Part shown: positions 5,047-38,308 of the stretch, piece by piece
Position numbering within the stretch: the stretch's first letter is position 1
How the letters are laid out: the number at the start of each line of letters is the position of its first letter
IMG/VR virus record: IMGVR_UViG_3300025921_000034
Span: 1-45,011 of that record
Strand: one strand, 5' to 3'
Length of the DNA stretch: 45,011 nucleotides
From: a virus
The notes under the pieces: generated by a model
What the model saw: only the letters and a program-made list of their open reading frames with translations
What the model was told of the DNA's origin: nothing
Databases searched by the model: none
Made by a program: the position numbers and the translations under genes

Positions 5047-5048
5047 AT

Positions 5049-5082: not shown

Positions 5083-5089
5083 GCCTCGT

Positions 5090-5867: not shown

Positions 5868-5874
5868 TGTCGGT

Positions 5875-19664: not shown

Positions 19665-19690
19665 TTGACAGGTCGCGCGACGCGTGATCC
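19665..19690 (+). promoter_or_regulatory. Late element 1, TTGAC-N14-GTGATCC
   Basis: TTGAC at 19665-19669 is followed by 14 bases and then GTGATCC at 19684-19690, eleven bases before the gpW ATG at 19702. It is one of five copies with nearly fixed spacing upstream of late genes, and is proposed as a late promoter or activator site. Confidence 0.65.
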
Positions 19691-19701
19691 GTCCGAGGTG
19701 G

Positions 19702-19944
19702 ATGGCATGGACGCAAGCTGATGCCGACGCGGTGCAGGCCGCGGTGATCGCGCTCGCGTCCGGCACTCGAGCGACCATGGTGTCGTTTACGGGACCGCCT
19801 GCGCGCCAGGTGCAGTACGCCGTCGCCGAGCTGCCGCAACTTCGAGCGTTGTTGGCGGAAATTCAGCGCGCTTTGGCCAAAACGGCCACGTTTCGCCGGG
19901 TTTCTTTCAGCAAAGGATTCGATCCGCCGAGGGGTTCGGGATGA
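19702..19944 (+). CDS. Head-tail joining protein gpW-like, 80 aa
   Basis: The ATG at 19702 follows GAGG; the GTG at 19684 is part of the late element and was not chosen. The sequence MAWTQADADAVQAAVIALAS, then GTRATMVSFTGPPARQVQYA and ELPQLRALLAEIQRALA matches the gpW pattern. That pattern is a helix with an aromatic start, a beta hairpin around a Gly/Arg segment, and a second helix. Length and position between terminase and portal agree with lambda W. It completes the filled head before tail joining. The last 20 residues are a basic tail. Confidence 0.8.
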   Translation: MAWTQADADAVQAAVIALASGTRATMVSFTGPPARQVQYAVAELPQLRALLAEIQRALAKTATFRRVSFSKGFDPPRGSG

Positions 19945-21512
19945 GCAAGGCGATCGCAATCCGCATGGCCGGGCAGCAGCTCACGCGCTGGGACCGCGTG
20001 CTACTGACGCTGTTCCCGAAGTGGGGAGCGCAGCGCGTTCGCGCGCGCCTCGCACGCCACTACGAGGCCGCCCAGGGCGGTCGCCGGACCGACGGATGGC
20101 GCCGCAGCGCTAGCGACGCGAACGTCGCTAACCGCCCGGCGCTCGCCGCGCTGCGCGAGCTCTCGCGCGATCTGCGCCGCAACAACGGCTGGGCGAAGCG
20201 CGGCATCCAGGCCGTCGTCAACAACACCGTCGGCTGGGGAATCATGCCGAAGGCAAAGCCGCACCGCTCGTCGGCTCGCATGGAGGCGGCGATCGAGCTT
20301 TTCAACGACTGGGCGGACTCGACCGCGTGCGACTACGACGGACGGCTCACGTTCTACGGCCTGCAGCGTCTCGTGATGGAGACCGTCGCGGAGTCCGGCG
20401 AGTGCCTCGTCGTGCGGCAGCCCGCGGCTTCCGCGGATGGCCTCGCGATTCCGATGCGGCTGCACGTGCTCGAGCCCGACTACCTCGACATGAACCGCAA
20501 CGGCTTCATCGGCGAGAGCGGTGGGCCGACCTACAACGGCGTCGAGTTCGACAAGTTCGGCCGGCGGACCGCGTACTGGCTGTTCACCGAGCACCCGGGC
20601 GGGCTGCGGCTGCAGACGACGCAGTTCTATTCGATCCGCGTTCCGGCCGAGCGCGTGATCCACGTGTATCGCGTCGATCGGCCGGGTCAGATCCGCGGTG
20701 TGCCGTGGTTGGCGTCCGCGATCTCGCGCCTGAAGGACTACGACGACTTCGAGGACGCCGAGCTCATGCAGCAGAAGGTTGCGGCGTGCTTCGGCGCGTT
20801 CGTCACCGACATGGAAAGCGCGGCGCCGGCGCTCGGGCAGGAAGGCGTCGATTCGCAGGGCAACGCGATCGAGTCGCTCGAGCCCGGTCACATCGAGTAC
20901 CTGCCGCCAGGCAAGACGGTGACGTTCGCGACGCCCCCGTCGCCGCAAGGTGGGTCGCTCTCGACGCGCACGCTGCGACGTATCGCCGTCAGCCTCGGCA
21001 TCACGTACGAGGAGCTGACGGGGGATTACTCCCAGGTCAACTTCAGCTCGGCGCGCATGGCGCGGATCTCCGAGTGGCAGAACGTCTGCGAGTGGCGCGA
21101 GCACATGCTCATCCCGCAGCTCTGCCAGGGCGTGTGGAACTGGGCGATGGCCCTCGCGGCCGCGATGAACGACTGGCCGGCGGTCCCCGGCGCGACATGG
21201 TCGGCTCCTCCGATGCCGATGCTCGAGCCCGACAAGGAAGGCCTCGCGTACCAGCGCCTGATCCGCAACGGCCTCATGACGTGGCCGCAAGTGATCCGCG
21301 AGCTTGGCTACGACCCGCGCGAGCAGATGCAGGAGATCGCGGACACGAACAAGGCGCTCGACGACGCCGGCGTCGTGCTCGACTTCGACCCGCGGCAGAT
21401 GACGCAAGCGGGACAGGTCCAGGCCGCACCGTCGGAGTCGGAAGCCTCCGGCGAGACCTCGACGGATGCCGCCGACGCCGCAGACACGGGTGCTAGCTCG
21501 ACCGCGCACTGA
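19941..21512 (+). CDS. Portal protein, lambda gpB family, 523 aa
   Basis: The ATG at 19941 overlaps the gpW stop. Family features are clear: RELSRDLRRNNGWAKRGIQA near residue 75, VVNNTVGWGIMPKAKP, then FYGLQRLVMETVAESGECLV. Later come ERVIHVYRVDRPGQIRGVPW and LAGDY-like TGDYSQVNFSSARMARISEW around residue 355. It forms the dodecameric ring through which DNA enters and leaves the head. The C-terminal 45 residues are Ala/Asp/Ser-rich. Length is normal for the family. Confidence 0.92.
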   Translation: MSKAIAIRMAGQQLTRWDRVLLTLFPKWGAQRVRARLARHYEAAQGGRRTDGWRRSASDANVANRPALAALRELSRDLRRNNGWAKRGIQAVVNNTVGWGIMPKAKPHRSSARMEAAIELFNDWADSTACDYDGRLTFYGLQRLVMETVAESGECLVVRQPAASADGLAIPMRLHVLEPDYLDMNRNGFIGESGGPTYNGVEFDKFGRRTAYWLFTEHPGGLRLQTTQFYSIRVPAERVIHVYRVDRPGQIRGVPWLASAISRLKDYDDFEDAELMQQKVAACFGAFVTDMESAAPALGQEGVDSQGNAIESLEPGHIEYLPPGKTVTFATPPSPQGGSLSTRTLRRIAVSLGITYEELTGDYSQVNFSSARMARISEWQNVCEWREHMLIPQLCQGVWNWAMALAAAMNDWPAVPGATWSAPPMPMLEPDKEGLAYQRLIRNGLMTWPQVIRELGYDPREQMQEIADTNKALDDAGVVLDFDPRQMTQAGQVQAAPSESEASGETSTDAADAADTGASSTAH

Positions 21513-21523
21513 TCGCTCGCCAC

Positions 21524-21549
21524 TTGACGGCGTGAAATCGCCGTGATCC
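21524..21549 (+). promoter_or_regulatory. Late element 2, TTGAC-N14-GTGATCC
   Basis: TTGAC at 21524-21528 and GTGATCC at 21543-21549 lie in the 47-base gap after the portal gene, ten bases before the ATG of the protease-capsid gene. The spacing is the same as in copies 1, 3 and 5. Confidence 0.65.
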
Positions 21550-21559
21550 TGACCTCGAC

Positions 21560-23578
21560 ATGGCAGGGCAGAACAAGCGCGGAGCCACACGGGATGTCCC
21601 GCTGCTCGATCTGCGCGCGACGTTCGAACCTGCGACGTTGAACGTCGACAAGCGCACCGTCGATCTGGTGTGGACGACTGGCGCGGCGGTCTTGCGCGGC
21701 GGCCTCTGGTCCGACCCGTACTACGAAGAGCTGTCGCTCGACCCGAAGCACGTGCGCATGGAGCGACTGCAGAGCGGCGCGGCGCCGCTTCTCAACTCGC
21801 ACAGCAGCTACGACGTTTCCGACGTGCTCGGAGTGGTCGAGACCGCGAGCCTCGGCAAGAAGAACGGGACTGCGACCGTTCGTTTCGCAAAGGGCCCCGT
21901 CGGCGACGACGTGCTCGCGAAGGTGCAGGACGGAATCCTGCGCAACGTCTCGGTCGGCTACCGGACCTACGAGATGCAGCAGGTGAAGGGCGGCGACGGA
22001 ACGATCGCGCGCTTCATGGCGACCGACTGGGAGCCCTACGAGATTTCGCTTGTTCCGATCGGTGCCGATGCTGGCGCCGTTACTCGGTCCGCTACGGGGA
22101 CGACCCCGTGCGTTTTCATTCAGGAGAGAGCCATGGAGAACGAGAACCCGTCCCCGACCACCGCGCCGGCCGTTGCGCCGACGACCACCGCGCCGGCGAC
22201 GGCGTCCTCCGAGCAGCTCCGCGCCGTCGAGCGCGCAGCTGAAACCCGCGCCGTCGAGCGCGTGCTGGGCATCCAGCGCCGCGGCGCTGCACTCGGCCAG
22301 ACGGCCGAGCAGATCCAGCAGGCGATCGCGAGCGGTGAATCGCTCGCCGAGTTTACCGCTCGCGCAGTCGACGAGCGTGCGGCAAAGGACACGCTGCCGC
22401 TCAAGCCGAGCGGCGACGTGCACATCCAGGGCGGCGAGGACCGTCGCGACAAGCTCGCGCGCGGCATGGGCGCATGGCTGATCCAGCGATCGGGTCAGCA
22501 GCAGCTGATCGCCGCCGGCGCAGAGAAGGCGCCGCATCTCGTCGCGAAGGGCGACACCGACCCCGGCGAGTTCCGGGGCATGACGCTCGTGGATATGGCG
22601 CGCGCTTCGCTCGAGGCGGCCAACATCCGGACCGCCGGCATGAGCCGCAACGACCTCGTCGGCAAGGCGCTGACGATGCGTTCGGCTGTCGCGTCGACCA
22701 GCGACTTCCCGAACATCCTCGAGAACATCCTCTACAAGGTGTTGCTCGCGCAGTACGCGATCACGCCGGACACGTGGAAGCAGTTCTGCAAGATCGGCAG
22801 CGTCTCGGATTTCCGGACGAACAAGCGCTACCGCCTCGGCACGTTCGGCTCGCTTAGCGCGCTGAACGAGCTCGGCGAGTTCACGAACAAGTCGATCCCC
22901 GATGCCGAGAAGCAGTCGCTGACCGCTTCGACGAAGGGCAACATCATTGGCATCTCGCGCCAGGCGATCATCAACGACGACATGGGTGCGTTCGACACCC
23001 TCGCCGCGATGCTCGGCCGCGCTGCGGCGCTCTCGCAGGAGGTCGACGTCTACGCCCTGCTCGCGCAGAACGCGGGCCTCGGCCCGACGATGACGGACGG
23101 CAACACGCTGTTCCACGCCTCACACAACAACCTGACGACCGGTGCGGCCATCGGCTCGGCAGCCATCGACGCTGACCGCGTGGCGATGGGTTCGCAGAAG
23201 GATCCCTCGGGCAACGAGGTCCTCGCGCTCATCCCGGCAGTGCTCGTCCTGCCGATCGGTCTCGGCGGCACGGCTCGCCAGATCAACAACGGCCAGTACG
23301 ACTTCGATGTTACGTCGAAGTTCCAGATCCCGAACCGCGTCGGCGGCCTGTTCAAGGCGATCATCGACACGCCGCGCATCACCGGCACGCGCCGCTACCT
23401 GTTCGCCGATCCTGGCGTCGCGCCGACCATCGAGGTCGCCTACGTCGAGGGCCAGGCGCAGCCGTTCATGGACCAGCACCTCGGATTCCGCACCGACGGC
23501 ATCGAGTGGAAGGTCCGCATGGACTACGGCGTCGCGGCGATCGACTTCCGCGGAGCGGTTACCAACGCCGGCGTCTAG
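21560..23578 (+). CDS. Prohead protease-major capsid protein fusion, 672 aa
   Basis: The ATG at 21560 opens an HK97-type (S78/U35) protease domain of about 185 residues. LLNSHSSYDVSDVLGVV carries the His, ILRNVSVGYRTYEM the Ser, and WEPYEISLVPIGADAGA the final strand. A Pro/Thr/Ala-rich stretch and a coiled scaffold-like region follow (EQLRAVERAAETRAVERVLG). From about residue 330 comes the capsid part (TASTKGNIIGISRQAIINDD, NTLFHASHNNL, TRRYLFADPGV). Such fusions are known in Mu-like and other phages. A strong internal start at 22133 lies in frame. The full product supplies protease, and cleavage would free mature capsid protein. Confidence 0.88.
   Translation: MAGQNKRGATRDVPLLDLRATFEPATLNVDKRTVDLVWTTGAAVLRGGLWSDPYYEELSLDPKHVRMERLQSGAAPLLNSHSSYDVSDVLGVVETASLGKKNGTATVRFAKGPVGDDVLAKVQDGILRNVSVGYRTYEMQQVKGGDGTIARFMATDWEPYEISLVPIGADAGAVTRSATGTTPCVFIQERAMENENPSPTTAPAVAPTTTAPATASSEQLRAVERAAETRAVERVLGIQRRGAALGQTAEQIQQAIASGESLAEFTARAVDERAAKDTLPLKPSGDVHIQGGEDRRDKLARGMGAWLIQRSGQQQLIAAGAEKAPHLVAKGDTDPGEFRGMTLVDMARASLEAANIRTAGMSRNDLVGKALTMRSAVASTSDFPNILENILYKVLLAQYAITPDTWKQFCKIGSVSDFRTNKRYRLGTFGSLSALNELGEFTNKSIPDAEKQSLTASTKGNIIGISRQAIINDDMGAFDTLAAMLGRAAALSQEVDVYALLAQNAGLGPTMTDGNTLFHASHNNLTTGAAIGSAAIDADRVAMGSQKDPSGNEVLALIPAVLVLPIGLGGTARQINNGQYDFDVTSKFQIPNRVGGLFKAIIDTPRITGTRRYLFADPGVAPTIEVAYVEGQAQPFMDQHLGFRTDGIEWKVRMDYGVAAIDFRGAVTNAGV
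22133..23578 (+). CDS. Predicted internal-start product: scaffold-capsid protein, 481 aa
   Basis: An in-frame ATG at 22133 (codon 192 of the fusion) is preceded by AGGAG at 22122-22126 with ideal six-base spacing, a better site than that of the full-length gene. Translation from here gives MENENPSPTTAPAVAPT, the delta/scaffold region and the capsid domain without protease. It would let the phage make many capsid subunits and few protease copies, as lambda does with C and Nu3. This is inferred from the ribosome-binding site. Confidence 0.55.
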   Translation: MENENPSPTTAPAVAPTTTAPATASSEQLRAVERAAETRAVERVLGIQRRGAALGQTAEQIQQAIASGESLAEFTARAVDERAAKDTLPLKPSGDVHIQGGEDRRDKLARGMGAWLIQRSGQQQLIAAGAEKAPHLVAKGDTDPGEFRGMTLVDMARASLEAANIRTAGMSRNDLVGKALTMRSAVASTSDFPNILENILYKVLLAQYAITPDTWKQFCKIGSVSDFRTNKRYRLGTFGSLSALNELGEFTNKSIPDAEKQSLTASTKGNIIGISRQAIINDDMGAFDTLAAMLGRAAALSQEVDVYALLAQNAGLGPTMTDGNTLFHASHNNLTTGAAIGSAAIDADRVAMGSQKDPSGNEVLALIPAVLVLPIGLGGTARQINNGQYDFDVTSKFQIPNRVGGLFKAIIDTPRITGTRRYLFADPGVAPTIEVAYVEGQAQPFMDQHLGFRTDGIEWKVRMDYGVAAIDFRGAVTNAGV

Positions 23579-23612
23579 TCGCTGACGAACCCAGCGAGCT
23601 CTTCGAGCTCGA

Positions 23613-23642
23613 AGCCCCCTGAGCTTGAACAGCCAGGGGGCT
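23613..23642 (+). terminator. Hairpin after the capsid gene
   Basis: AGCCCCCTG (23613-23621) pairs perfectly with CAGGGGGCT (23634-23642) around a 12-base loop AGCTTGAACAGC. No T tract follows, and GGGGCGTCAGGAG leads directly into the next ribosome-binding site. A near copy sits after the sheath gene at 26984-27012. It is more likely an mRNA stabiliser or partial attenuator than a full terminator. Confidence 0.6.
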
Positions 23643-23663
23643 GGGGCGTCAGGAGAGACGACG

Positions 23664-24017
23664 ATGAACAACTTTCTTCAGCCCGGCATCAACCAGGAAT
23701 ACACCGCGCCCGGCGGCGGCGTCGTCAGTGGCACCCCCGTCCTGATCGGCGGCCTCGTCGTGATCCCGCTCGTGTCGGCAGCGGCCGGCGTGCGCTTCAA
23801 CGGCGAAGTCGAGGGCGTGTACACGCTGCCCAAGACCGCCGGCTCGGCATGGACCGAAGGTCAGGTCCTGTACTTCGACAGCGCGACCACGAGCTTCACC
23901 ACGGCCGCGTCCGCGACCGCGCGCCGCGCGGGTATCGCGAACGCTGCGGCGTTGAGCGCGGCCACGACCGGCCAGGTCTACCTGCTCAACGTCGGCGCAG
24001 CTGTCAACGTCGCCTAG
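23664..24017 (+). CDS. DUF2190-like capsid decoration protein, 117 aa
   Basis: The ATG at 23664 follows AGGAGAG. The product MNNFLQPGINQEYTAPGGGV, then VVSGTPVLIGGLVVIPLVSA and GVYTLPKTAGSAWTEGQVLY matches DUF2190. Members are small beta-rich proteins next to capsid genes that form cement or decoration trimers. Ala/Thr-rich repeats and a hydrophobic end fit this. It follows the capsid gene after an intergenic hairpin, so its expression may be tuned relative to capsid. Confidence 0.8.
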   Translation: MNNFLQPGINQEYTAPGGGVVSGTPVLIGGLVVIPLVSAAAGVRFNGEVEGVYTLPKTAGSAWTEGQVLYFDSATTSFTTAASATARRAGIANAAALSAATTGQVYLLNVGAAVNVA

Positions 24018-24025
24018 GGCCCGCC

Positions 24026-24385
24026 ATGGGCTTCGCCGAGCTCGTCGCTGCGGCCGATCGTGCCGCGCAGGCTATGCTCGGTGGCGAGCCGGTGACGTAC
24101 GCGCCCGAGTCGGTCGGCTTGCCGGTCCAGCTCGGCGCGCCGCTAGGCGTTCAGCCGGTCACGATCACCGGCATGTTCGACTCGCAGTTCGTGCTCGCCG
24201 AAGGCGATGCGCATGCAGGTGTCGAGGCCGCGGGTCCCGCGGTGTTCTTCCGCGTCGAGGACCTGCCGGCCGATCCGGAGACGGACAACCCGACGATCAC
24301 GATCCGCGGCGTGGACTACAGCGTGACGTTTCGCAAGCCGGACGGCATGGGCGGCATCGTCCTCGGGCTGCGCACGATCGTCTGA
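24026..24385 (+). CDS. Head-tail joining protein, FII-like, 119 aa
   Basis: The ATG at 24026 begins MGFAELVAAADRAAQAMLGG. The rest is beta-rich: EPVTYAPESVGLPVQLGAPL, GMFDSQFVLAEGDAHAGVEA, and the end TITIRGVDYSVTFRKPDGMG followed by GIVLGLRTIV. Length (lambda FII is 117 residues), the final strand pattern and the place between decoration protein and tail terminator fit an FII-type head completion protein. It would plug the portal and form the tail docking site. Confidence 0.65.
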   Translation: MGFAELVAAADRAAQAMLGGEPVTYAPESVGLPVQLGAPLGVQPVTITGMFDSQFVLAEGDAHAGVEAAGPAVFFRVEDLPADPETDNPTITIRGVDYSVTFRKPDGMGGIVLGLRTIV

Positions 24386-24388
24386 GCC

Positions 24389-24414
24389 TTGACGTCGCGA
24401 TCACGTCGTGATCC
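24389..24414 (+). promoter_or_regulatory. Late element 3, TTGAC-N14-GTGATCC
   Basis: TTGAC at 24389-24393 and GTGATCC at 24408-24414 lie in the 40-base gap before the tail terminator gene. The chosen ATG at 24426 is 11 bases downstream. The spacer also contains CGCGATCACG, a local dyad. Confidence 0.65.
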
Positions 24415-24425
24415 TGACGGCGTTG

Positions 24426-25238
24426 ATGGCGCACCCGCGCAAGCTCCTTCGCCAGGCCGTGATCGCGCTGCTCGCTGCAGCGCCCACGTCAGCGGGGCCG
24501 CGCGTGTCGAGCTCGCGTGTCGACCCGTATCGCGAGAACGAGCTGCCGGCGATCTCGGTGTTCACGTTTCACGAGGACACGGACGCGGATTCTGCGGAGA
24601 CCGCGCCGATCGTGCTCACCCGCGTCGCGAAGGTCGAGATTGCCGCGTGGGTCCGCGACACGAAGGCGTTGCCCGCAGCCGAGGCGATGGACGACATCGC
24701 GGAGCAAATCGAGGCCGCGATGGCCTCCGACTACTACCTGTCGACGCCCGTGGCGGTCACCGCAGTGAATCACGCGACCGGCGCGATCACTGCCCCCGCG
24801 CACGGGCTCGAGACGGGCGACCCCTGCATCATCCGCGCGGGACAGAGCGGCGTGCTGCCGAGCGGTGCGCCGACGTTCGAATGCTTCGCCGTCGTCATCG
24901 ACGATGACACGCTGCAGCTGGCGAAGTCGCTGAGCGATGCGCTCAACGGCCGCGTCGCGACGTTCAGCGACAACGGGACGCTGCCGCTCCAGATCCGCAA
25001 GGACGCGGTCGTCGAGCAGCTGCTCGAGAGCACCGACTGCGAGCTCGCCGCGCTCGACGGCAAGAGCGACCCGCTCGTCGGCATCATCGTGCTGACGTAC
25101 TCCGTCAAGTACCGGACTTGTCCGGCGACCGTCGCGACGCCGAACGACTTCCTGACGGCAGACGTCAAGCAGCAGCTCGTCGGCGGCGTGGTCGACACGC
25201 AGGTCGTCGAGGACACCATCACCGTGAGGAGCCCATGA
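24426..25238 (+). CDS. Tail terminator-like protein with inserted beta module, 270 aa
   Basis: The ATG at 24426 gives MAHPRKLLRQAVIALLAAAP; a GTG at 24408 is part of the late element. The N-terminal 105 residues (ENELPAISVFTFHEDTDADS, VAKVEIAAWVRD) and the C-terminal part (STDCELAALDGKSDPLVGII, TYSVKYRT) fit the gpU-type tail terminator fold. Between them, from about residue 110 to 190, lies an extra beta-rich module with AHGLETGD and NGTLPLQI. A similar module begins the fibre-like protein at 36969-37871. Many gpU proteins are about 130 residues, so the insertion explains the length. Confidence 0.65.
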   Translation: MAHPRKLLRQAVIALLAAAPTSAGPRVSSSRVDPYRENELPAISVFTFHEDTDADSAETAPIVLTRVAKVEIAAWVRDTKALPAAEAMDDIAEQIEAAMASDYYLSTPVAVTAVNHATGAITAPAHGLETGDPCIIRAGQSGVLPSGAPTFECFAVVIDDDTLQLAKSLSDALNGRVATFSDNGTLPLQIRKDAVVEQLLESTDCELAALDGKSDPLVGIIVLTYSVKYRTCPATVATPNDFLTADVKQQLVGGVVDTQVVEDTITVRSP

Positions 25239-25474
25239 GAGTGAAGCCCGTCAATCCCGACAACGCTGTCGGGCTCATCGATCCGCAGACCATGCGGTCG
25301 CCGTTCCTCGACCCGATGACGGGCGAGCCGCTCGAGAGCGCGGACGTTCCGGACAACACGTTCTGGAACCGCCGCCTCATCGCCGGCGAAATCGCGCGCT
25401 GCGCGGAGCCGACCACGAGCACGCCGACCGGCCGTGAGCCCGTCGCGCCGCTCACCACGCGGAGCCAGGGGTAA
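25235..25474 (+). CDS. DUF2635-like small tail protein, 79 aa
   Basis: The ATG at 25235 overlaps the upstream stop. The sequence MRVKPVNPDNAVGLIDPQTM, then SADVPDNTFWNRRLIAGEIA follows the DUF2635 pattern: V-K-P at the start, an Asp-Pro, and a final V-P-x2-x-x-W-x-R-R-L. This family is the gene directly before the sheath in Mu-like tails. The Thr/Pro-rich end is probably flexible. Its exact job in tail assembly is unknown. Confidence 0.75.
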   Translation: MRVKPVNPDNAVGLIDPQTMRSPFLDPMTGEPLESADVPDNTFWNRRLIAGEIARCAEPTTSTPTGREPVAPLTTRSQG

Positions 25475-25477
25475 GCC

Positions 25478-26962
25478 ATGTCGATCAGCTTCAATCAGGT
25501 TCCATCGAACATCCGCATCCCGTTCTTCGCGGCGGAGTTCGACTCCTCGAAGGCCCAGCAGGGCCCGTCGCTGCTGACCTATAAGGGCCTCATCATCGGC
25601 CAGAAGCTCGCGAGCGGCACGTTCACCGCGGACACCGTCGTGAAGGTGTCGAGCCTCGACCAGGTCATTCTCGGCGCAGGCCGCGGCTCGATGCTGCATC
25701 GCCAGTACCTCGCATGGATCGCGGTCAACAAGACGACCGAGGTGTGGATGGGCGTCCTCGCCGACAACGGCGCCGGCGTCGCCGCGACCGGCACGATCGT
25801 CGTCAACTCGGCGGCGACCGGCGCGGGCACGATCCAGCTCTACCTCGGCGGCGTGCTCGTCTCCGTCGGCGTGAACAGCGGCGACCTGTCGACCGCGATC
25901 GCGACCAACATCGCGGCCGCGATCAACGCGCTGCCGGACCTTCCGGTGACCGCGACCGTGTCGACGTCGACGGTCACGCTGACGTATCGCCACAAGGGAC
26001 TCACCGGCAACACGTACGACGTCCGCACGAACTACCGCGACGGCGACGCGCTCCCTGCGGGCGTGACGCTGACGATCACGGCGATGGGCGCGGTGGTTGC
26101 CGGCACGACGGCACCGTCGACGACGAACTTGATCGCGGCGATGGTAAGCATGTGGTTCCACATCTGGACCCACCCGTACACCGACGCGGCCACGCTGACC
26201 GCGCTCGAGACCGAGCTCGCGACGCGCAACGGCCCGATGCGCCAGCAGCAGGGCCTCGCGATCACGTCCGCATCCGGGTCGTTCTCGACGCTCTCGGCGC
26301 TTGGCGTCAGCCGCAACAGCCCGCACTCGGTCATCGTGGCGCAGACCGGCCACACGCCGCTCACGCCTCCGATGGAGTTCGCCGCGGAGACCGCCGGGCT
26401 CGTCGCGCTGTACGGCGCCGCGGACCCGGGCCGTCCGTTCCAGACACTCGCGTACTCGCGCGCCCTGCCGACGCCCGAGACCGACCAGTGGGACCCGAGC
26501 ACGGAGCGGAACCTGCTCCTGTACACGGGCATCGCCACCACGAAGCGCGCCGCTGGCGGCGTCGTGCAGATCGACCGCCTGATCACGACGTACGAGACGA
26601 GCTCGAGCGGCGCGTCCGATACGGCGTACCTCGATGCGACGACGCTGCTGACGCTGATGTACCTGCGCTACAGCTTCAAGGTTCGCATCCAGAACAAGTA
26701 CCCGCGCCACAAGCTGGCCGACGATGGCAGCCGGTTCGGCTCGGGGCAGGCGGTGATCACCCCCTCGATCGGCAAGGCCGAGGCGGTCGGCTGGTTCGGC
26801 GACATGCTCGAGCTCGGCCTCGTGGAGGACCTCGCGCAGTTCAAGCGAGACCTCGTGTGCGCGCGCAGCTCGACGGATCCGAACCGCCTCGAGTGGCTGC
26901 TGCCGCCGAACCTGATCAACCAGTTCATCGTCGGAGCGGCGCAGATCCAGTTCCTGCTGTAG
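25478..26962 (+). CDS. Contractile tail sheath protein, Mu gpL-like, 494 aa
   Basis: The ATG at 25478 starts MSISFNQVPSNIRIPFFAAE, the conserved sheath N-terminus. Further features are GPSLLTYKGLIIGQKLASG, a long beta-domain in the middle, and QQGLAITSASGSFSTL. Later come NSPHSVIVAQTGHTPLTPPM and the C-terminal VVQIDRLITTYETSSSG with YLDATTLLTLMYLRYSFKVR. The final LVCARSSTDPNRLEWLLPPN and LINQFIVGAAQIQFLL are typical of Mu-type sheaths. It contracts to drive the tube through the envelope. Confidence 0.93.
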   Translation: MSISFNQVPSNIRIPFFAAEFDSSKAQQGPSLLTYKGLIIGQKLASGTFTADTVVKVSSLDQVILGAGRGSMLHRQYLAWIAVNKTTEVWMGVLADNGAGVAATGTIVVNSAATGAGTIQLYLGGVLVSVGVNSGDLSTAIATNIAAAINALPDLPVTATVSTSTVTLTYRHKGLTGNTYDVRTNYRDGDALPAGVTLTITAMGAVVAGTTAPSTTNLIAAMVSMWFHIWTHPYTDAATLTALETELATRNGPMRQQQGLAITSASGSFSTLSALGVSRNSPHSVIVAQTGHTPLTPPMEFAAETAGLVALYGAADPGRPFQTLAYSRALPTPETDQWDPSTERNLLLYTGIATTKRAAGGVVQIDRLITTYETSSSGASDTAYLDATTLLTLMYLRYSFKVRIQNKYPRHKLADDGSRFGSGQAVITPSIGKAEAVGWFGDMLELGLVEDLAQFKRDLVCARSSTDPNRLEWLLPPNLINQFIVGAAQIQFLL

Positions 26963-26983
26963 CTGAGCGTGCCCCCTGCACGT

Positions 26984-27012: not shown

Positions 27013-27032
27013 TAAGGCGTCAGAGGACCACC

Positions 27033-32355: not shown

Positions 32356-32359
32356 CACC

Positions 32360-32389
32360 CCGAGGTAGCGCACATCTGCGCTACCTCGG
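32360..32389 (+). terminator. Strong 13-bp stem-loop after the spike gene
   Basis: CCGAGGTAGCGCA (32360-32372) pairs perfectly with TGCGCTACCTCGG (32377-32389) around a four-base loop CATC. It is the longest perfect stem seen in the window. No T tract follows, as is common in GC-rich genomes. It sits four bases after the gp45/V stop and 26 bases before late element 4, so it marks a transcription boundary. Confidence 0.7.
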
Positions 32390-32414
32390 CCTCCGCGGCC
32401 GCTCCGCCGATGGC

Positions 32415-32441
32415 TTGACAGCCCCGCGCAGCGCGTGATCC
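32415..32441 (+). promoter_or_regulatory. Late element 4, TTGAC-N15-GTGATCC
   Basis: TTGAC at 32415-32419 and GTGATCC at 32435-32441 are separated by 15 bases, one more than in the other copies. The gp47/J start codon at 32452 lies ten bases downstream. The element directly follows the strong stem-loop, so it looks like a terminator-promoter junction. Confidence 0.65.
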
Positions 32442-32451
32442 CTGAGGGTGG

Positions 32452-33537
32452 GTGCCGTTCGCGCGCCCGACCCTCGCCGAGCTAGTCACCCGCATCAAGG
32501 GCGACCTGCGCGGACGCCTCGAGCTCGACGGCTCGCTGGTGCGTCGAGCGATGGCGGACGTGCTCGCGACCGTCTGGGCCGGCGCCGTTCACACGATCTA
32601 CGGCTTCCAGGACTGGCTCGCGAAACAGCTGTTTGGCGACACGTCCGACGAGGAAATGCTCATCCGCCAGGCGGGGCTGTACGGCATCACGCTGGTGCCT
32701 GCGGTGTTCGCGACCGGCACGGCGACGGTCTACGGCACGATCGGCGCGGTCGTCGCCGCGAACACGGTGCTGCGGCTAGACGAGGTCACCTCGTACCTCG
32801 TCACCTCGAGCCAGACGCTCGTCCTCGACGGCCTGACCGGCAGGGGCAAGGCGACGCTGCCGATCGAGGCCGCGCTCGCGGGCGCTCTCGCGAACATCCC
32901 CGCGACGACCACGCTGACCTTCGAGAGCCCGGTCACGGGCGTCGACTCGACGGCCACGGTCGACGCCGACATCACGAACGGCGTCGACGAGGAGACGATC
33001 GACTCGCTCCGCGCGCGCTACCTGCTTCGCCTGCGCGAGCCGCCCGAGGGCGGCGCCGACCAGGACTACGAGGCGTGGGCGCTCGCGGTGCCAGGCGTCA
33101 CGCGCACGTGGGTCTACCCGAACGAGAACGGACTCGGCACGGTCGTCGTGCGGTTCGTTCGCGATAACGATGTCGGCTCCATTTTCCCGGACGCTGGCGA
33201 GGTAGCCGCGGTGCAGGCTGCCGAGGACGCTCAGAGGCCAATCACGGCGGCGGTGACCGCCGTGGCCCCGACGAACCTCGCGGTCGCGTTCACCATCCAC
33301 CTCGTCCCGGACACGACCGACACGCGCGCGGCTGTGCTCGCCGAGCTCGGCGACCTGCTGACGCGCGTTGCGGAGCCGGGCGACGGCGCTGGGCGCGGCA
33401 CGGTGCTGCTCTCTGCGATCCGCACCGCGGTTGGAACCGCCGAGGGCGTCGCCGACTACGTGGTGAGCGTGCCGGCGGCGGACGTCGTGCCCGGTCTCGG
33501 CCAGCTCGCGACGGTGGGGACGCCCACGTGGGTCTGA
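32452..33537 (+). CDS. Baseplate wedge protein J, Mu gp47-like, 361 aa
   Basis: The GTG at 32452 gives MPFARPTLAELVTRIKGDLR. Baseplate J features include AVHTIYGFQDWLAKQLFGDT, EEMLIRQAGLYGITLVPAVF and a Val-rich middle. Then come DEETIDSLRARYLLRLREPP, GGADQDYEAWALAVPGVTRT and VYPNENGLGTVVVRFV. Length is normal. It forms the outer baseplate wedge. The usual gp46 gene precedes it in Mu; here gp46 is found much later (36444-36968), so the order is rearranged. Confidence 0.88.
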   Translation: MPFARPTLAELVTRIKGDLRGRLELDGSLVRRAMADVLATVWAGAVHTIYGFQDWLAKQLFGDTSDEEMLIRQAGLYGITLVPAVFATGTATVYGTIGAVVAANTVLRLDEVTSYLVTSSQTLVLDGLTGRGKATLPIEAALAGALANIPATTTLTFESPVTGVDSTATVDADITNGVDEETIDSLRARYLLRLREPPEGGADQDYEAWALAVPGVTRTWVYPNENGLGTVVVRFVRDNDVGSIFPDAGEVAAVQAAEDAQRPITAAVTAVAPTNLAVAFTIHLVPDTTDTRAAVLAELGDLLTRVAEPGDGAGRGTVLLSAIRTAVGTAEGVADYVVSVPAADVVPGLGQLATVGTPTWV

Positions 33538-33555
33538 TTCTGAACGGAGAGCCGC

Positions 33556-34098
33556 ATGTCTAACTTCGTCGACGACGATCTCGATCTCCCCAACAGCCCG
33601 AAGGTGGACGCGGTCGCGCCGCCTGTCGGCGTGCCGGCGACCGAGCAGTTCGCTGCGGCGGACCACCAGGCGATTCGCCAGGCGCTGCTCGACATCAAGA
33701 ACCAGCACGTAGGGCCGTCGGCGACCAACGCGGATGGCGTCATCATCCCGCCCGGCGCGCCGTGCCGCTACTCGGGCGCGACGTCGATCGCGCGCGCGAA
33801 GGCGGACGCCGCCGCGAATGCCGAGGTCGACGGGCTCGCGCTGGCCCAGCTCGCGATTGCGGGTGCGGGCAAGCTGCGAGTGGCCGGCATCCACACGCTC
33901 GCCACCGCGCTTTGGGACGCGGTCACCGGGCAGACCGGCGGCCTCACGCCGAACACCGTCTACTACCTCGACCCGTCGAACGCCGGAAAGCTCACCACGA
34001 CCGCGCCGACGACGGCAGGCCAGCAGGTCGTGCGCATCGGGCGCGCGATCAACTCCACCCAGATGCGGCTGCTGATCCAGCCGCCGATCGGACTCTAG
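33556..34098 (+). CDS. Fibre-associated structural protein, 180 aa
   Basis: The ATG at 33556 follows ACGGAGAG. After an acidic start (MSNFVDDDLDLPNSPKVDAV) there is AADHQAIRQALLDIKNQHV, typical of the helical start of some fibre genes. The beta-rich end (GGLTPNTVYYLDPSNAGKLT, then QQVVRIGRAINSTQMRLLIQ) is the common small-structural-protein fold also used in decoration and fibre proteins. Its location between J and the large fibre-like gene suggests a fibre or baseplate accessory. Confidence 0.6.
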   Translation: MSNFVDDDLDLPNSPKVDAVAPPVGVPATEQFAAADHQAIRQALLDIKNQHVGPSATNADGVIIPPGAPCRYSGATSIARAKADAAANAEVDGLALAQLAIAGAGKLRVAGIHTLATALWDAVTGQTGGLTPNTVYYLDPSNAGKLTTTAPTTAGQQVVRIGRAINSTQMRLLIQPPIGL

Positions 34099-34100
34099 CC

Positions 34101-35645
34101 ATGCTGCCAGCGCTCCTTCGCCGCTCCCTCTCTCGCCGCGCTGTCGTCGCCGGTGTCGTCGTGTTGATGGCGCTCTCCGCGGGCGTCACGTGGCAGCTCT
34201 TCCACGGCGCCGATATCGACCTCAGCATCATGACGCCGGCCGCGCACCGGCCGCTGGTCGCCGTCAACGGCAAGGTCCAGCGCGTGCCGAGCGGCGACTA
34301 CCTCGATCCGACCGTCCTCGTCGACACGACGGGCTGCTCGGACACGAACGTGATCAAGTGGAACGCGAGCCTGACGAAGTTCGCGTGTGGAGCCGGCGGC
34401 ACCGGGGGCGGCATCACGAACACCGCGCCGGCGCTGACCGTGCCCGTGTCCGATGGCACGAACGTCGGCTCGAGCGGCATCAAGGACGACAGCTCGATCG
34501 TCTCGCTGCCGGCGCGCAAGCTCCAAATCGGCACCGTTCCCGTCCCCTCCGCCAATCAGGTTTGGATCCAGCCGCAGACCGGCACGACGACGACGCAAGC
34601 GTGGATCCAGGAGGACGATACCGGCCACGTCGGCTCCGCCGGCATCAACGAATCGATCAACCTCGTCCTGCGGAACTTCACCGGTCACGCGATGGGGACC
34701 GGCGGAACCGCCTCAGCCGGCAGCCTCGATATCAACGTGAACGCGAGCAAGACGTCGGGCACGGGCACGCTGACGACGTACGGCATCCTCAGCAACGCGC
34801 AGGGCGGCGATCAGAACTACGCGTTCTGGTCGACGGCCGGCGACATCTCGATGAGCACCAGCAACAGCGCGGCGCTTGGCGCGACATCCGTGACCACGCT
34901 CAGCGCGAGCGGCGCGACCGTCGACTTCTCGGGCGTGTCGACGTCGGTCGACATCGGAACGAAGGTCAAGCCGTTCAAGGTTCCGGGCTCCACTTCGTCG
35001 AACCCGCACGTCGAGCTTGGGACGAACACGAACGACCAGTTCCAGCTGACGATGAAGAACACCGTCGCGGCGAACAGCTTCGCGGGCGTCGAGGTCGCAG
35101 GCGACACCACGGTGCAGGCGAACATTCGGCCGGGATATGTGCTTTATCGCGGCGCCGGCGGCGGCATCGGCGGCAGCGTGGAGGGCGGAATCACTATCGC
35201 CTCCGGCGGCGGCTTCCCGTTCGCGCAGTCCACCGCAAATAGCGTCGGCGTGTTCGCGGAGAGCGGCCAGGCGCTGATGTTCGGCGCGGACTCGGGCTTC
35301 AACGCGAGCATGAGCATCGCTGGCGACGCCACCGGCGACGTGATTCTCATGCCAGGCGCCCCTGGCATCTCGGGGCACCTGCGCGCGCAGGGCGCGGCAG
35401 TGACGCTGACGAACGCGACTTGCAGCAGCAGCACGTGCAACGATATCGCAGGGACGATCACGACGACCAGCACGACCGCGACGGTCACGTTCAACAAGAC
35501 GTACACCGGCGCGAACGACGCGACCTGCATCATCCTTCCGCAGGGCACCGCGACGATGCCGGTGTGCACGGAGTCGGCGACGGCGATCACCTGCACGACG
35601 GTGATCAACGCGACCAAGTACAACTACCAGTGCGTGGGGCACTGA
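34101..35645 (+). CDS. Tail fibre-like protein with N-terminal membrane segment, 514 aa
   Basis: The ATG at 34101 gives MLPALLRRSLSRRAVVAGVV, then VLMALSAGVTWQLFHG, a classic basic-then-hydrophobic signal anchor of about 20 residues. The rest is Gly/Ser/Thr-rich beta sequence (GGGITNTAPALTVPVSDGTN, SINLVLRNFTGHAMGTGGTA) with a final domain containing AAVTLTNATCSSSTCNDIAG and ATVTFNKTYTGANDATCIIL. That fits tail-fibre C-termini with Cys pairs. A membrane segment is unexpected for a virion fibre. It could be a lysogen surface protein or a fibre that uses the segment for assembly. The longer frame upstream is a shadow. Confidence 0.6.
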   Translation: MLPALLRRSLSRRAVVAGVVVLMALSAGVTWQLFHGADIDLSIMTPAAHRPLVAVNGKVQRVPSGDYLDPTVLVDTTGCSDTNVIKWNASLTKFACGAGGTGGGITNTAPALTVPVSDGTNVGSSGIKDDSSIVSLPARKLQIGTVPVPSANQVWIQPQTGTTTTQAWIQEDDTGHVGSAGINESINLVLRNFTGHAMGTGGTASAGSLDINVNASKTSGTGTLTTYGILSNAQGGDQNYAFWSTAGDISMSTSNSAALGATSVTTLSASGATVDFSGVSTSVDIGTKVKPFKVPGSTSSNPHVELGTNTNDQFQLTMKNTVAANSFAGVEVAGDTTVQANIRPGYVLYRGAGGGIGGSVEGGITIASGGGFPFAQSTANSVGVFAESGQALMFGADSGFNASMSIAGDATGDVILMPGAPGISGHLRAQGAAVTLTNATCSSSTCNDIAGTITTTSTTATVTFNKTYTGANDATCIILPQGTATMPVCTESATAITCTTVINATKYNYQCVGH

Positions 35646-35815
35646 TGCGGAGCGAGCGCACCTGGTTCGCGATCGCCGTGCTCGTCGCCGCGACCTTGCT
35701 CGTCGCGCTCGGCAAGCTGCCCGGCGCCGACTGGGCGAAGCTCGTCATGGTCATCGCGGGCGTGCTGATGCACGACGCTGCGCTCGCCGCGCCGGCGCCG
35801 GAGGCGGCTCCGTAG
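35645..35815 (+). CDS. Two-helix membrane protein, holin-like, 56 aa
   Basis: The ATG at 35645 shares one base with the preceding stop. The peptide has one clear hydrophobic helix (WFAIAVLVAATLLVALGKL) and a second (WAKLVMVIAGVLMHDAALAA) joined by a short PGAD turn, then a Pro/Ala end. Size and two-span layout fit class II holins. However, it lies between fibre and gp48 genes, far from the endolysin, so a structural or regulatory membrane role is possible. Confidence 0.55.
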   Translation: MRSERTWFAIAVLVAATLLVALGKLPGADWAKLVMVIAGVLMHDAALAAPAPEAAP

Positions 35816-35824
35816 CCGACGCCC

Positions 35825-36442
35825 GTGCCGCTGCTGCCATTCATCCTCGCAGGACCGCTCGGCGACGACGCGCCGAACGCGTACACGCGCATGATGATGG
35901 CGCTGCTGCCGCCCGGGAAGGTGTGGCGGCTGATCGATGGCTCGTGGCTGCACTCGCTGTTCGCCGGCCTCGCGGACGAGCTCGGGCGCTTCGACCAGCG
36001 CAGCGAGGACCTGCTCGACGAGGCCATTCCGTCGTCCGCGAGCGAGCTGCTGCCCGAGTACGAGCGCGAGCTCGCGCTGCCGTCGACCGGCACCGATGAC
36101 GAACGGCGCGCGCGGATCGTGGCGCGGACGGTGGCGCGGCAACGCTACCGTCCGGTGGACTTCCAGAACGCGCTCGCCGCCATCCTCGGCGTCGCGCCGG
36201 CCTCGGTTGTCGTGATCGAGCGCTCGCACGCGTTCGCAGTGTCGATCGGCGACGTGCGCGAGATCTACAGGTTCTTCATCTATCGGGACCCGACGCTGCC
36301 GGGCACGTACTCGGTCGCCGACGCGCAGGCGCTCGTCGACCAGATCAAGCCGTCGCACACGCTCGGCCAGGTGATCGAGAGCGTCAACTTCCTCTGCGAC
36401 GATCCGCACTCGCTGTGCGATCGCGACCTGTTGGGGGCCTGA
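35825..36442 (+). CDS. Tail protein I, Mu gp48-like (DUF2313), 205 aa
   Basis: The GTG at 35825 gives MPLLPFILAGPLGDDAPNAY. It has MALLPPGKVWRLIDGSWLHS, the family's LLP-x-G-x-x-W motif, and DELGRFDQRSEDLLDEAIPS. Then come ELLPEYERELALPS and YRPVDFQNALAAILGV. The family is the inner wedge/tail-tip protein that precedes fibres in Mu. The C-terminal CDDPHSLCDRD is a local variation. Confidence 0.83.
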   Translation: MPLLPFILAGPLGDDAPNAYTRMMMALLPPGKVWRLIDGSWLHSLFAGLADELGRFDQRSEDLLDEAIPSSASELLPEYERELALPSTGTDDERRARIVARTVARQRYRPVDFQNALAAILGVAPASVVVIERSHAFAVSIGDVREIYRFFIYRDPTLPGTYSVADAQALVDQIKPSHTLGQVIESVNFLCDDPHSLCDRDLLGA

Positions 36443-36443
36443 C

Positions 36444-36968
36444 GTGGCGAGCTCGAGCGCACTCGGCCTCGGCGACATCGCCCTCGTCTGGGACAACCAG
36501 CAGGGCAACGCGGACGTGTACATCCTCGACGGCGATGTCGCGAGCGAGCGCGGGCTCGCGACCGCGGTCCTGCTGTCGCTGTTCACAGACCGGCGCGCGA
36601 ATAACGACGACGTCCCGCCGAGCGGCGACGCGACGGACCGGCGCGGCTGGTGGGGTGACCAGTTCCTCGAGGACGGCGGCGACCTCTACGGCTCGCGGCT
36701 GTGGCTGCTCGACCGCTCCACGCTGAGCAACGAGACCGTGCTGCGCGCGACCGAGTACGCGAAGGAAGCGCTGCAATGGATGGTCGACGATAAGGTCGTC
36801 TCCACGATCGGCGTCGTCGCGACGCGGCCGTCGAAGGCCGACGCAGCAACGCTCGGCTTTGCCATCGGCAACGGGCTCGTGATCCAGGTCGAGCTGCAGC
36901 GTCCAGGCAAGGACGCGGTCTCGTTCCGGTTCGCGCACGTCTGGGACCACGTGCAGGAGGACATCTAG
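36444..36968 (+). CDS. Baseplate protein gp46-like, 174 aa
   Basis: The GTG at 36444 starts one base after the gp48 stop. GDIALVWDNQQGNADVYILD, GLATAVLLSLFTDRRAN and DRRGWWGDQFLEDGGDLYGS carry the family's GWWGD-x-F signature. LWLLDRSTLSNETVLRATEY, then AKEALQWMVDDKVVSTIGV follows. It is a GPW/gp25-like wedge part. In Mu, gp46 lies before gp47; here it follows gp48. Confidence 0.88.
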   Translation: MASSSALGLGDIALVWDNQQGNADVYILDGDVASERGLATAVLLSLFTDRRANNDDVPPSGDATDRRGWWGDQFLEDGGDLYGSRLWLLDRSTLSNETVLRATEYAKEALQWMVDDKVVSTIGVVATRPSKADAATLGFAIGNGLVIQVELQRPGKDAVSFRFAHVWDHVQEDI

Positions 36969-37871
36969 ATGGGCGCTCTAACTGTTGCCTCCGTCGACAA
37001 TACGACGGACACGATCCAGGTCATCGCGCACGGCCTCAACACCGGCGACGGGCCTGGCGCGTTCTTCGTCGGCGTCGGCGGCGTCATCCCGACTGGACTC
37101 ACCGCGGCAGCGGACACGTGGGTGATCCGCGTCGATGCCGACCACTTCAAGGTTGCGTCGTCGAGCGCGAATGCTCTCTCGAACACTCCGATTAACATCA
37201 CGGCCAATGGTACGCTGCCGCTGACCTACGGCATCGGCCTGCCGTATCGCCGCGCGCGCACGTACGCGGCGCTGCAGCAGGTGAAGAGCGCGGACCTCGA
37301 CGCGCTCCAGGACGACGATTCGGCGCTGTACGCCTTCCTTACGGGGCAGCCTCAGACGGTCTACAGCGGGCTGGTGCTCGCGAGCGGACAGCACGCTCAG
37401 GTCCAAGGCGCTGGCATGTACAAGCGCGGGACGCGCGTGCGGCACATGCAGGGCAACGCCGGCATTCTGATCACCGCCCCGACCGCTGGCACGCAGTACT
37501 ACAGCTCGATCGGCGCGTTCGCGTTCAAATCGAGCTTCCCAGACACCGCTCGATGGGCGCTGGTCCTCGAGGAAGGGGAGCAGCTGCAGAGCGTGCGCGC
37601 CTACGTGTCGAACGGCGCGACAGACGTGCTCACGATGAAGCTCTTCAAGAGCACACAGGTCGTCGGCTCTGCTGTCGCCGGCGAGACGCAGATCGGCACC
37701 ACGCAGACGAGCTCGAACCACACGAACGTTTTGGAGCAGCTCGCAATCACGGGCCTGACTGAGAACATCGGGAGCGGCGTCACGTGGTACTCGGTGGAGC
37801 TCGCTTGCACGGCGTTCGCGAACGCCCCGAAGTGCTACGGCATCGACTACACCACGATCGTCGGCCCCTAG
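36969..37871 (+). CDS. Fibre-like protein with shared beta module, 300 aa
   Basis: The ATG at 36969 directly follows the gp46 stop. Residues 1-90 form a beta module with IAHGLNTGD, VIRVDADHFKVASSSANALS and NGTLPLTYG that resembles the insert of the tail terminator at 24426. The middle is ordinary fibre sequence (QPQTVYSGLVLASGQHAQVQ), and the end (ALVLEEGEQLQSVRAYVSNG) is a jelly-roll-like carbohydrate-binding pattern. It probably recognises the host surface. It ends in a CTAG shared with the convergent lipoprotein gene. Confidence 0.6.
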   Translation: MGALTVASVDNTTDTIQVIAHGLNTGDGPGAFFVGVGGVIPTGLTAAADTWVIRVDADHFKVASSSANALSNTPINITANGTLPLTYGIGLPYRRARTYAALQQVKSADLDALQDDDSALYAFLTGQPQTVYSGLVLASGQHAQVQGAGMYKRGTRVRHMQGNAGILITAPTAGTQYYSSIGAFAFKSSFPDTARWALVLEEGEQLQSVRAYVSNGATDVLTMKLFKSTQVVGSAVAGETQIGTTQTSSNHTNVLEQLAITGLTENIGSGVTWYSVELACTAFANAPKCYGIDYTTIVGP

Positions 37872-38170
37872 TTGCAGGGCCAGGTCTGCGCTGCGTCGGT
37901 CGCGACGCAGCAGCAGTAGTCGCCGCGCCCGGTCACATCGGCGCAGCGAAGACCGGCGTCCGGCATCTCACCTGCCGGGTTTCTGCCGTCGCTGCATGTG
38001 TACGACAGCGTCGGTCCGGAGCCGAGGTCCGGGCACGAGCGAGCCGCGTCGACCGCGCAAGTCGGCGCCGGCGCGTCCGGCACCGCATCGACTGCCGCGT
38101 CCGGCATCTCGCGCGCGTCGTCGCTGCCACCGCACCCCATCAACGCCACCGCCACTAGCAGATTTCGCAT
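37868..38170 (-). CDS. Predicted lipoprotein, myxobacterial type, 100 aa
   Basis: The ATG at 38170 gives MRNLLVAVALMGCGGSDDAR, a short signal with a LMG|C lipobox. It continues with EMPDAAVDAVPDAPAPTCAV, the Asp-Ala-Pro linker seen in many myxobacterial lipoproteins. A Cys-rich domain (RSCPDLGSGPTLSYTCSDGR, then YCCCVATDA) follows, so disulphides are likely. The gene is opposite to the late genes and shares its stop bases with the fibre gene (CTAG). It is probably a moron expressed in the lysogen, perhaps for surface exclusion. The function is inferred from position only. Confidence 0.7.
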   Translation of the reverse strand: MRNLLVAVALMGCGGSDDAREMPDAAVDAVPDAPAPTCAVDAARSCPDLGSGPTLSYTCSDGRNPAGEMPDAGLRCADVTGRGDYCCCVATDAAQTWPCN

Positions 38171-38231
38171 TTCACCATCCTGCGCCTTCCGTCTGACGAT
38201 TCAAGGTGTCGCCGGGGTAGGAATGCGCGCG

Positions 38232-38253
38232 AGGCGGATCGCCGCGATTCCGC
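38232..38253. repeat. Inverted repeat upstream of the lysis cassette
   Basis: GGCGGATCG pairs with CGATTCCGCC through a three-base loop and one bulged T. It lies between the divergent lipoprotein gene and late element 5, so it may insulate the two transcripts or bind a regulator. No T tract accompanies it. Confidence 0.35.
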
Positions 38254-38282
38254 CGGTGTGCCGGTGACGCAAATTGCTGCAC

Positions 38283-38308
38283 TTGACGGTCCGGAGGGGC
38301 CGTGATCC
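38283..38308 (+). promoter_or_regulatory. Late element 5, TTGAC-N14-GTGATCC
   Basis: TTGAC at 38283-38287 and GTGATCC at 38302-38308 are 14 bases apart and lie 12 bases before the ATG of the first lysis-cassette gene (38321). This copy follows the only divergent gene pair of the late region, so it must drive the cassette if it is a promoter. Confidence 0.65.

What the first reader, a model, noticed from the sequence alone, without database searches (positions are those of the whole stretch)
19665..38308. Five-copy late element TTGAC-N14/15-GTGATCC directly before late gene starts
The same two-block motif occurs at 19665-19690, 21524-21549, 24389-24414, 32415-32441 and 38283-38308. Spacing is 14, 14, 14, 15 and 14. 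The start codon follows after 11, 10, 11, 10 and 12 bases. All five lie in the few real gaps between late genes (gpW, protease-capsid, tail terminator, gp47/J and lysis cassette). GTGATCC does not fit a normal -10, and the distance is short for sigma-70. It may be a promoter for a phage-modified or alternative sigma factor, or an activator site. With a normal offset the transcripts would be nearly leaderless.
Basis: partly seen in the sequence, partly recalled or inferred. Interest (0 to 1): 0.78.

Follow-up and report, generated by a model that had tools for sequence, protein, structure and literature searches.

The report
Leaderless phage late promoters, candidate regulator
Five copies of a two-part DNA signal in this phage are very probably the switches for its late (virus-building) genes; they place the RNA start almost exactly on the gene's first codon, use an unusual second half in place of the standard one, and occur together with one small zinc-binding DNA-binding protein that is the best candidate for throwing the switch.

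Summary
TTGAC-N14/15-GTGATCC occurs exactly five times (expected 0.01), all on the + strand, each 10-12 bases before a late-gene start. A matrix trained on other phages finds the same five at 26-32 bits; the next hit is 11.8. The element recurs before orthologous genes in at least seven related phages (69 unique sites, 59 with a start codon 34-39 bases after the first T, mode 37).

Best reading: late promoters with ordinary RNA-polymerase geometry and leaderless starts. TTGACA is the -35; TGATCC is an extended -10 (TGn) plus the first three -10 bases, with the usual 17-bp spacer. Relatives without GTGATCC carry TAG/TAC/TAT in that slot, and this phage's two early promoters carry TAAGAC/TAGACA with the same leaderless geometry. 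Motif genes lack Shine-Dalgarno sequences (2/39 versus 92/165).

The late class differs from the early class mainly by TCC for TAn, so something must read it. One gene, 14619-14966 (zinc knuckle plus MerR-type winged helix), accompanies the motif in seven phages and is absent from four relatives lacking it. Searching with that protein found a new phage, which carried six sites. The regulator link is correlative; no transcript start has been mapped. Host unknown.

The parts
19665..19690 (+). late promoter 1 (TTGACA...GTGATCC), 11 bases before gpW start 19702
21524..21549 (+). late promoter 2, 10 bases before capsid-protease start 21560
   Evidence: orthologous site in L014, L015, L155, L160, L161, L171 and variants in others
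24389..24414 (+). late promoter 3, 11 bases before tail terminator start 24426
   Evidence: orthologous site L014:4569
32415..32441 (+). late promoter 4 (one extra spacer base), 10 bases before gp47/J start 32452 (GTG)
   Evidence: like sites before 358-360-aa reading frames in G007 and G001
38283..38308 (+). late promoter 5, 12 bases before ATG 38321
19702..19944 (+). gpW-type head-tail adaptor, first gene of late unit 1 (portal 19941-21512 follows)
21560..23578 (+). capsid-protease fusion, first gene of late unit 2
24426..25238 (+). tail terminator, first gene of late unit 3 (sheath 25478-26962 follows)
32452..33537 (+). baseplate wedge gp47/J, first gene of late unit 4
38321..38818 (+). unknown protein, first gene of late unit 5 (amidase endolysin, C-terminal part 40955-41737, downstream)
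14619..14966 (+). candidate late regulator, 115 aa: CPxC-x11-H-x4-C zinc knuckle plus MerR-type winged helix-turn-helix; start preceded by GGAGG
5838..5874 (+). early rightward leaderless promoter TTGACG-N18-TAGACA-N7-ATG (contrast class)
5875..6117 (+). small HTH repressor-like protein (phrog_8) behind the early rightward promoter
5047..5082 (-). early leftward leaderless promoter TTGACC-N17-TAAGAC-N7-ATG (contrast class), before gene 5046-4627

Best explanation
The five elements are the promoters of five late transcription units. RNA polymerase holoenzyme sits on them in the ordinary sigma-70-family register: TTGACA/G is the -35 contact; the T-G of GTGATCC is the extended -10; TCC fills -12 to -10 where TAn stands in ordinary promoters; RNA starts on, or up to about three bases before, the A/G of the start codon. 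The first gene of each unit is therefore translated from a leaderless or near-leaderless mRNA, while later genes of the unit mostly use Shine-Dalgarno sequences. The phage's early promoters share the -35 and the leaderless geometry but have a TA-type -10. Because C at -11 is expected to be nearly dead for a primary sigma factor, the TGATCC class needs a late-specific reader. The most likely one is the phage protein 14619-14966, made from the preceding operon, which binds CGTGATCC in the -17 to -10 region and/or sigma region 2 and switches the late units on. Shown by sequence: the sites, the geometry, the conservation, the lack of Shine-Dalgarno sequences, the co-occurrence with the regulator. 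My confidence is about 0.85 for 'late promoter with leaderless geometry' and about 0.55 for the regulator step; the figure below is for the statement as a whole.
For: Sites. Conservation at orthologous starts. TTGAC-to-start distance sharply peaked: 13 of the pooled hits at 37 versus 0-4 at other offsets, none at 37 on the reverse strand; over 69 unique sites, 59 have a start at 34-39 with mode 37. Slot equivalence with canonical -10s: TGATAGAGG (L164), TTAGGAC (L151), GTACGGG and GTATCTC (L008) at the same 17-bp spacing. Twenty leaderless TTGA[C/T]-N16-18-TAnnnn-N4-9-ATG sites in this phage group versus 0-2 in shuffles, including two in this window, both overlapped by a GTTAGT operator repeat found only there. 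Shine-Dalgarno 4-mer in the last 14 bases: motif genes 2/39, other genes 92/165; last 11 bases 2/39 versus 59/165. Regulator: present in W, G007, G001, G014, G033 and absent from G002, G003, G015, G017, the only non-structural window gene so distributed; the search by regulator found G033, which then showed six sites; the search by motif found two further phages that carry the regulator. In the capsid tree carriers and non-carriers are intermingled, e.g. G014 beside G002, yet promoter type follows the genome, not the capsid gene. Fold: residues 54-115 resemble MerR-type winged helices (CvkR, CarH, SoxR, BldC, GlnR; Z 4.6-5.3).
Against: No transcript end, binding or expression data exist for any of these phages. 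Sheath and gp47 trees group the carriers together, so part of the regulator-motif association may be shared descent. A 77-aa gene (25241-25474) in the structural block has nearly the same distribution. The regulator model has moderate confidence (pLDDT 72, pTM 0.43) and no significant Foldseek or Pfam hit. Four variants keep ATCC but lose TG (L006, L149, L153, L017), so a strict extended -10 reading is not universal. L153 has a GGAGG between the element and ATG, which a leaderless start would waste. The energy-based Shine-Dalgarno contrast vanishes if only the last 10-11 bases are compared.
Confidence: 0.62

Rival explanations
1. A host alternative (for example ECF-type) sigma factor, not a phage protein, recognises TTGAC-N18-TCC; the regulator gene is an unrelated passenger (for example an excisionase-like or accessory protein).
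For: The two conserved blocks are the only conserved sequence, with no extra operator in the eight bases upstream or in the spacer, as for a sigma factor read alone. Distance from -35 AC to the TC of the -10 block (18) resembles that of sigma-E-type promoters (own knowledge). Lambda Xis and a transposon excisionase appear among weak fold matches of the regulator.
Against: Relatives in the same gene positions use plain TA-type -10s, so the promoter slot switches between readers; the regulator tracks the switch in both search directions. The regulator gene lies before the late block, not beside the integrase.
Confidence: 0.2
2. Ordinary primary-sigma promoters with an extended -10 and a poor -10 hexamer; no special reader, late timing comes from read-through, copy number or antitermination.
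For: The -35 is consensus, spacing is 17 bp, TG is at the extended -10 position. Variants drift towards TA in relatives.
Against: C at -11 and C at -10 are conserved at about 98% and 92% over 54 sites (the first of these columns was restricted to C or T by the search pattern), whereas drift of a weak -10 would scatter; early promoters of the same genomes keep TA.
Confidence: 0.12
3. An RNA-level translation element: GTGATCC pairs with GGATCAC just 5' of the anti-Shine-Dalgarno sequence of 16S rRNA, as an unusual ribosome-binding site.
For: Perfect 7-base complementarity to the conserved 16S 3' region (own knowledge of that sequence); the element keeps a fixed distance to the start codon; motif genes have no other Shine-Dalgarno sequence.
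Against: The aligned spacing to the start codon would be 16-18 bases instead of about 7; TTGAC 14 bases upstream is unexplained; ATCC-only and TA-type variants break the pairing; no Rfam family.
Confidence: 0.04
4. Chance recurrence or a shared coding or repeat feature.
For: None found.
Against: 0.01 expected versus 5 observed; spacers are dissimilar between copies; conserved at orthologous positions in phages whose capsids are 39-71% identical.
Confidence: 0.002

Closest known systems
Leaderless sigma-70-type promoters of actinobacteria (Mycobacterium; Shell et al. 2015, PMC4633059)
   Same: Start codon (ATG or GTG) at the transcript start and no need of a Shine-Dalgarno sequence; the -10 lies some 6-8 bases before the start codon (own knowledge).
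   Different: TA-type -10 there; here the late class has TCC in the -10 slot and a consensus TTGAC -35.
Middle/late promoters of Thermus phages phiYS40 and P23-45 (own knowledge; P23-45 extended -10 class noted in PMC7403470)
   Same: Phage temporal class set apart by a different promoter class, extended -10 type (P23-45) and mostly leaderless late transcripts (phiYS40).
   Different: Those lack a -35 and use a sigma-A-like -10, with gp39 displacing sigma-4 (P23-45). Here the -35 is kept and the -10 is changed.
T4 late (gp55) and SPO1 gp28 phage sigma promoters (own knowledge)
   Same: A phage-specific -10 block marks late or middle genes.
   Different: No sigma-like protein was found among the genes scanned; the candidate reader is a 115-aa zinc-knuckle winged-helix protein.
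P2 Ogr / P4 Delta late activators (own knowledge)
   Same: Small zinc-binding phage protein that would turn on several late operons.
   Different: Cys-Cys-His-Cys knuckle plus winged helix rather than the Ogr CX2CX22CX4C module; conserved DNA lies at -35/-10, not as a dyad near -55.
MerR-family spacer-binding activators (SoxR, BmrR) and BldC
   Same: Winged-helix fold similarity, Z about 4-5.
   Different: MerR promoters have a 19-20-bp spacer and a dyad in it; here the spacer is 17 bp and unconserved.

Membership tests
sigma-70-type -35/-10 promoter | -35 element near TTGACA | tested here: met
   sixth base A/G 94%; TTGAC at the fixed distance also in relatives picked by gene position and not by GTGATCC
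sigma-70-type -35/-10 promoter | -10 hexamer TAnnnT, above all A at -11 | tested here: not met
   TCC at -12 to -10 in all five window copies and 92-98% of sites; met in relatives L008, L151, L164 and in the early promoters of this window
sigma-70-type -35/-10 promoter | 17 +/- 1 bp spacer | tested here: met
   T of TCC lies 17 bp (18 in promoter 4) after TTGACR, same slot as TAG/TAC/TAT in relatives
extended -10 promoter | TG one base before the -10 hexamer (TGn) | tested here: met
   all five window copies; lost in the L006, L149, L153 and L017 variants
leaderless gene | start codon at transcript +1 (to +5) | not testable with these tools
   geometry predicts it (first T to start codon 36-38 bases); needs 5'-end mapping
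leaderless gene | no Shine-Dalgarno sequence | tested here: met
   2/39 motif genes have one versus 92/165 others
sigma-54 promoter | GG-N10-GC at -24/-12 | tested here: not met
   conserved columns show no such element
Ogr/Delta activator family | CX2CX22CX4C zinc module | tested here: not met
   alignment shows CX2C-x11-H-x4-C
MerR superfamily (DNA-binding domain) | winged helix-turn-helix of MerR type | tested here: inconclusive
   model resembles CvkR, CarH, SoxR, BldC at Z 4.8-5.3 but Pfam MerR only E=0.08-0.11
Shine-Dalgarno element | pairing with the 16S 3' end at about 7-base spacing | tested here: not met
   GTGATCC complementary, but aligned spacing 16-18 bases (positions)

The most novel reading that the evidence does not exclude
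A phage family has a late class of leaderless promoters made by changing only the -10 block (TAn to TCC, in a CGTGATCC box) while the host -35 is kept, and a 115-aa zinc-knuckle/winged-helix protein re-aims the -10 recognition of host RNA polymerase to that box: the mirror image of T4 sigma appropriation, which replaces the -35 reader.
Probability: 0.3. Interest if true: 0.78.

Novelty: new variant of a known kind. Interest (0 to 1): 0.62.

Why it matters
It gives an uncultured phage family a concrete, testable late-gene switch: the DNA element, the predicted transcript start to within a few bases, and a single candidate protein. If the protein re-directs -10 recognition, it would be a small and new way for a phage to take over RNA polymerase. 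It also shows a clean split inside one genome between leaderless first genes and Shine-Dalgarno-led inner genes, useful for predicting start codons and operon heads in such phages.

Tried and rejected
Spacer hairpin or RNA structure: by eye the spacers of the copies share no common stem, and there is no Rfam match. Shine-Dalgarno reading of GTGATCC: spacing wrong. GATC methylation switch: GATC is not rare (397 versus 413 expected) and variants lacking GATC exist. Gene 14991-15545, first suspected as regulator because it is 58-71% conserved, is a neck/tail-completion protein (phrog_27). Host search: best capsid relatives in 84,980 species genomes are 44% identical at most by best segment, and 379 genomes of the phylum of a Myxococcales genome gave only distant capsids without a convincing element, so the host stays unknown. 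Portal as query in viral contigs found nothing. No tRNA in the window. A literature search for GTGATCC with phage and promoter listed no paper on such an element among the eight shown of 544, which is weak evidence of novelty; the phiYS40 and P23-45 papers are not in the library.
Full report
OBSERVATION. The window is a whole virus record of 45,011 bp. The exact pattern gives five hits on the + strand and none on the other; 0.01 are expected. A position matrix trained on 50 sites of other phages picks the same five at 25.7-32.0 bits, with nothing else above 11.8 and null genomes reaching at most 14.7. They precede gpW, capsid-protease, tail terminator, gp47/J and an unknown gene that heads the block ending with an amidase.

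CONSERVATION. Relatives found by capsid or terminase carry the element before the same kinds of gene: L014, L015 (G007), L016, L155, L160, L161 (G014), L162, L169, L171. Sixty-nine unique sites were collected; 59 have an ATG or GTG start 34-39 bases after the first T (35: 6, 36: 16, 37: 25, 38: 10), and the end of GTGATCC lies 9-12 bases before it in 58 of the 59. The set was gathered with the motif, so the TTGAC and TGAT columns are conserved by construction; the flanking C-G before TGAT (87%, 92%), the second C after it (92%), the T next (74%) and A/G after TTGAC (94%) are largely free results, and part of the TGAC stretch further down comes from the search pattern.

GEOMETRY. An unbiased look at capsid starts (also 21) shows the same register with different -10 blocks: GTGATCC or close forms, TCATCC, TAATCC, GCATCC, ATATCC, and also plain TA-type blocks TGATAGAGG, TTAGGAC and GTACGGG at the same 17-bp distance from TTGAC. 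T at the first position of the slot is nearly constant. This places TGATCC at -15 to -10: extended -10 plus T-12 C-11 C-10. With ordinary spacing to +1, RNA begins at or up to about three bases before the start codon.

LEADERLESS TRANSLATION. Genes behind the element lack a Shine-Dalgarno 4-mer in 37 of 39 cases; among 165 other confident genes of the same phages 92 have one in the last 14 bases. Binding energies agree over 17 and 14 bases but not over the last 10-11, where there is little room. Independently, TTGA[C/T]-N16-18-TAnnnn-N4-9-ATG occurs 20 times in the group against 0-2 in shuffles. Two of these are the divergent early promoters of this window, each covered by a GTTAGT/ACTAAC repeat that occurs nowhere else; one drives a small HTH repressor-like gene. 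So one genome has two promoter classes with the same -35 and the same leaderless geometry: early TA-type, late TCC-type. Known support for leaderless ATG/GTG starts: PMC4633059.

REGULATOR. Comparing complete or near-complete genomes, 14619-14966 is the only non-structural gene of this window present in all five first-found carriers (W, G007, G001, G014, G033) and absent from four relatives without the element (G002, G003, G015, G017). One small gene in the structural block (25241-25474) behaves alike. The protein has a CPxC...H...C knuckle and a C-terminal winged helix, modelled with moderate confidence; residues 54-115 match MerR-type DNA-binding domains at Z about 5, Pfam gives nothing significant. 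Prediction one way: a search with the protein found a new phage, G033, which has six TTGAC-N14-GTGATC sites. Prediction the other way: a collection scan with an extended DNA pattern found two more phages with start-linked sites in which the held DNA contains the protein (L272, L277), while the pattern hits without a start codon (L260, L261, L264, L270, L278, L283), and L259 with only a TTG, look like chance matches and showed no regulator in the DNA held. W, G007 and G014 have GGAGG before the regulator start, and P43610 (L272) has GGAGG too, so it is a leadered gene of the preceding operon. Several other short contigs with sites do not reach far enough to show whether they carry the gene, and G016 ends near the expected place, so it is undecided.

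CONFOUNDING. Carriers group together in sheath and gp47 trees, so common descent explains part of the association. In capsid and TerL trees carriers and non-carriers mix; the G014 capsid is closest to that of G002, yet G014 has GTGATCC and G002 has GGTGACA in front of it. That favours the promoter being adapted to the genome's reader.

MECHANISM AND LIMITS. Shown from sequence: sites, register, conservation, two promoter classes, lack of Shine-Dalgarno sequences, co-occurrence. Inferred: start of RNA, that CC at -11/-10 prevents use by the primary sigma factor, that the 115-aa protein reads the box or remodels sigma region 2. No spacer dyad and no conserved block just upstream of -35 argue against a classical activator site close by; the region near -55 was not examined. 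A host alternative sigma factor remains the main rival. The host is unknown.

VERDICT. A real, conserved late-promoter class with leaderless geometry; new variant of a known kind, with a testable candidate regulator.

Noticed in passing
5050-5105 and 5827-5856: Operator-like GGTTAGTC/GACTAACC repeats (five half-sites) lie only at the two divergent early promoters, a likely lysogeny switch with leaderless genes on both sides.
   Followed up: partly
11905-14334: Large ParB-like plus MT-A70 methyltransferase fusion protein.
   Followed up: no
15727-16863: HNH endonuclease/endonuclease VII-like gene that also matches a terminase small subunit family (residues 63-200), directly before the true terminase small subunit; perhaps a homing-type insertion that copied the recognition domain.
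   Followed up: no
14991-15545: Neck/tail-completion protein lying before the terminase genes, away from the other neck genes, yet among the best conserved proteins (58-71%).
   Followed up: partly
1-45011: TTGAC is skewed between strands: 13 on + and 34 on -.
   Followed up: no
4627-5046 (-): Gene behind the early leftward promoter weakly resembles a response-regulator receiver domain (Pfam E 8e-7, just under cut-off).
   Followed up: no
L153:5189-5230: A variant capsid promoter TTGACA-N14-TAATCC followed by GGAGGAG before ATG: may be an intermediate between leaderless and leadered starts.
   Followed up: no
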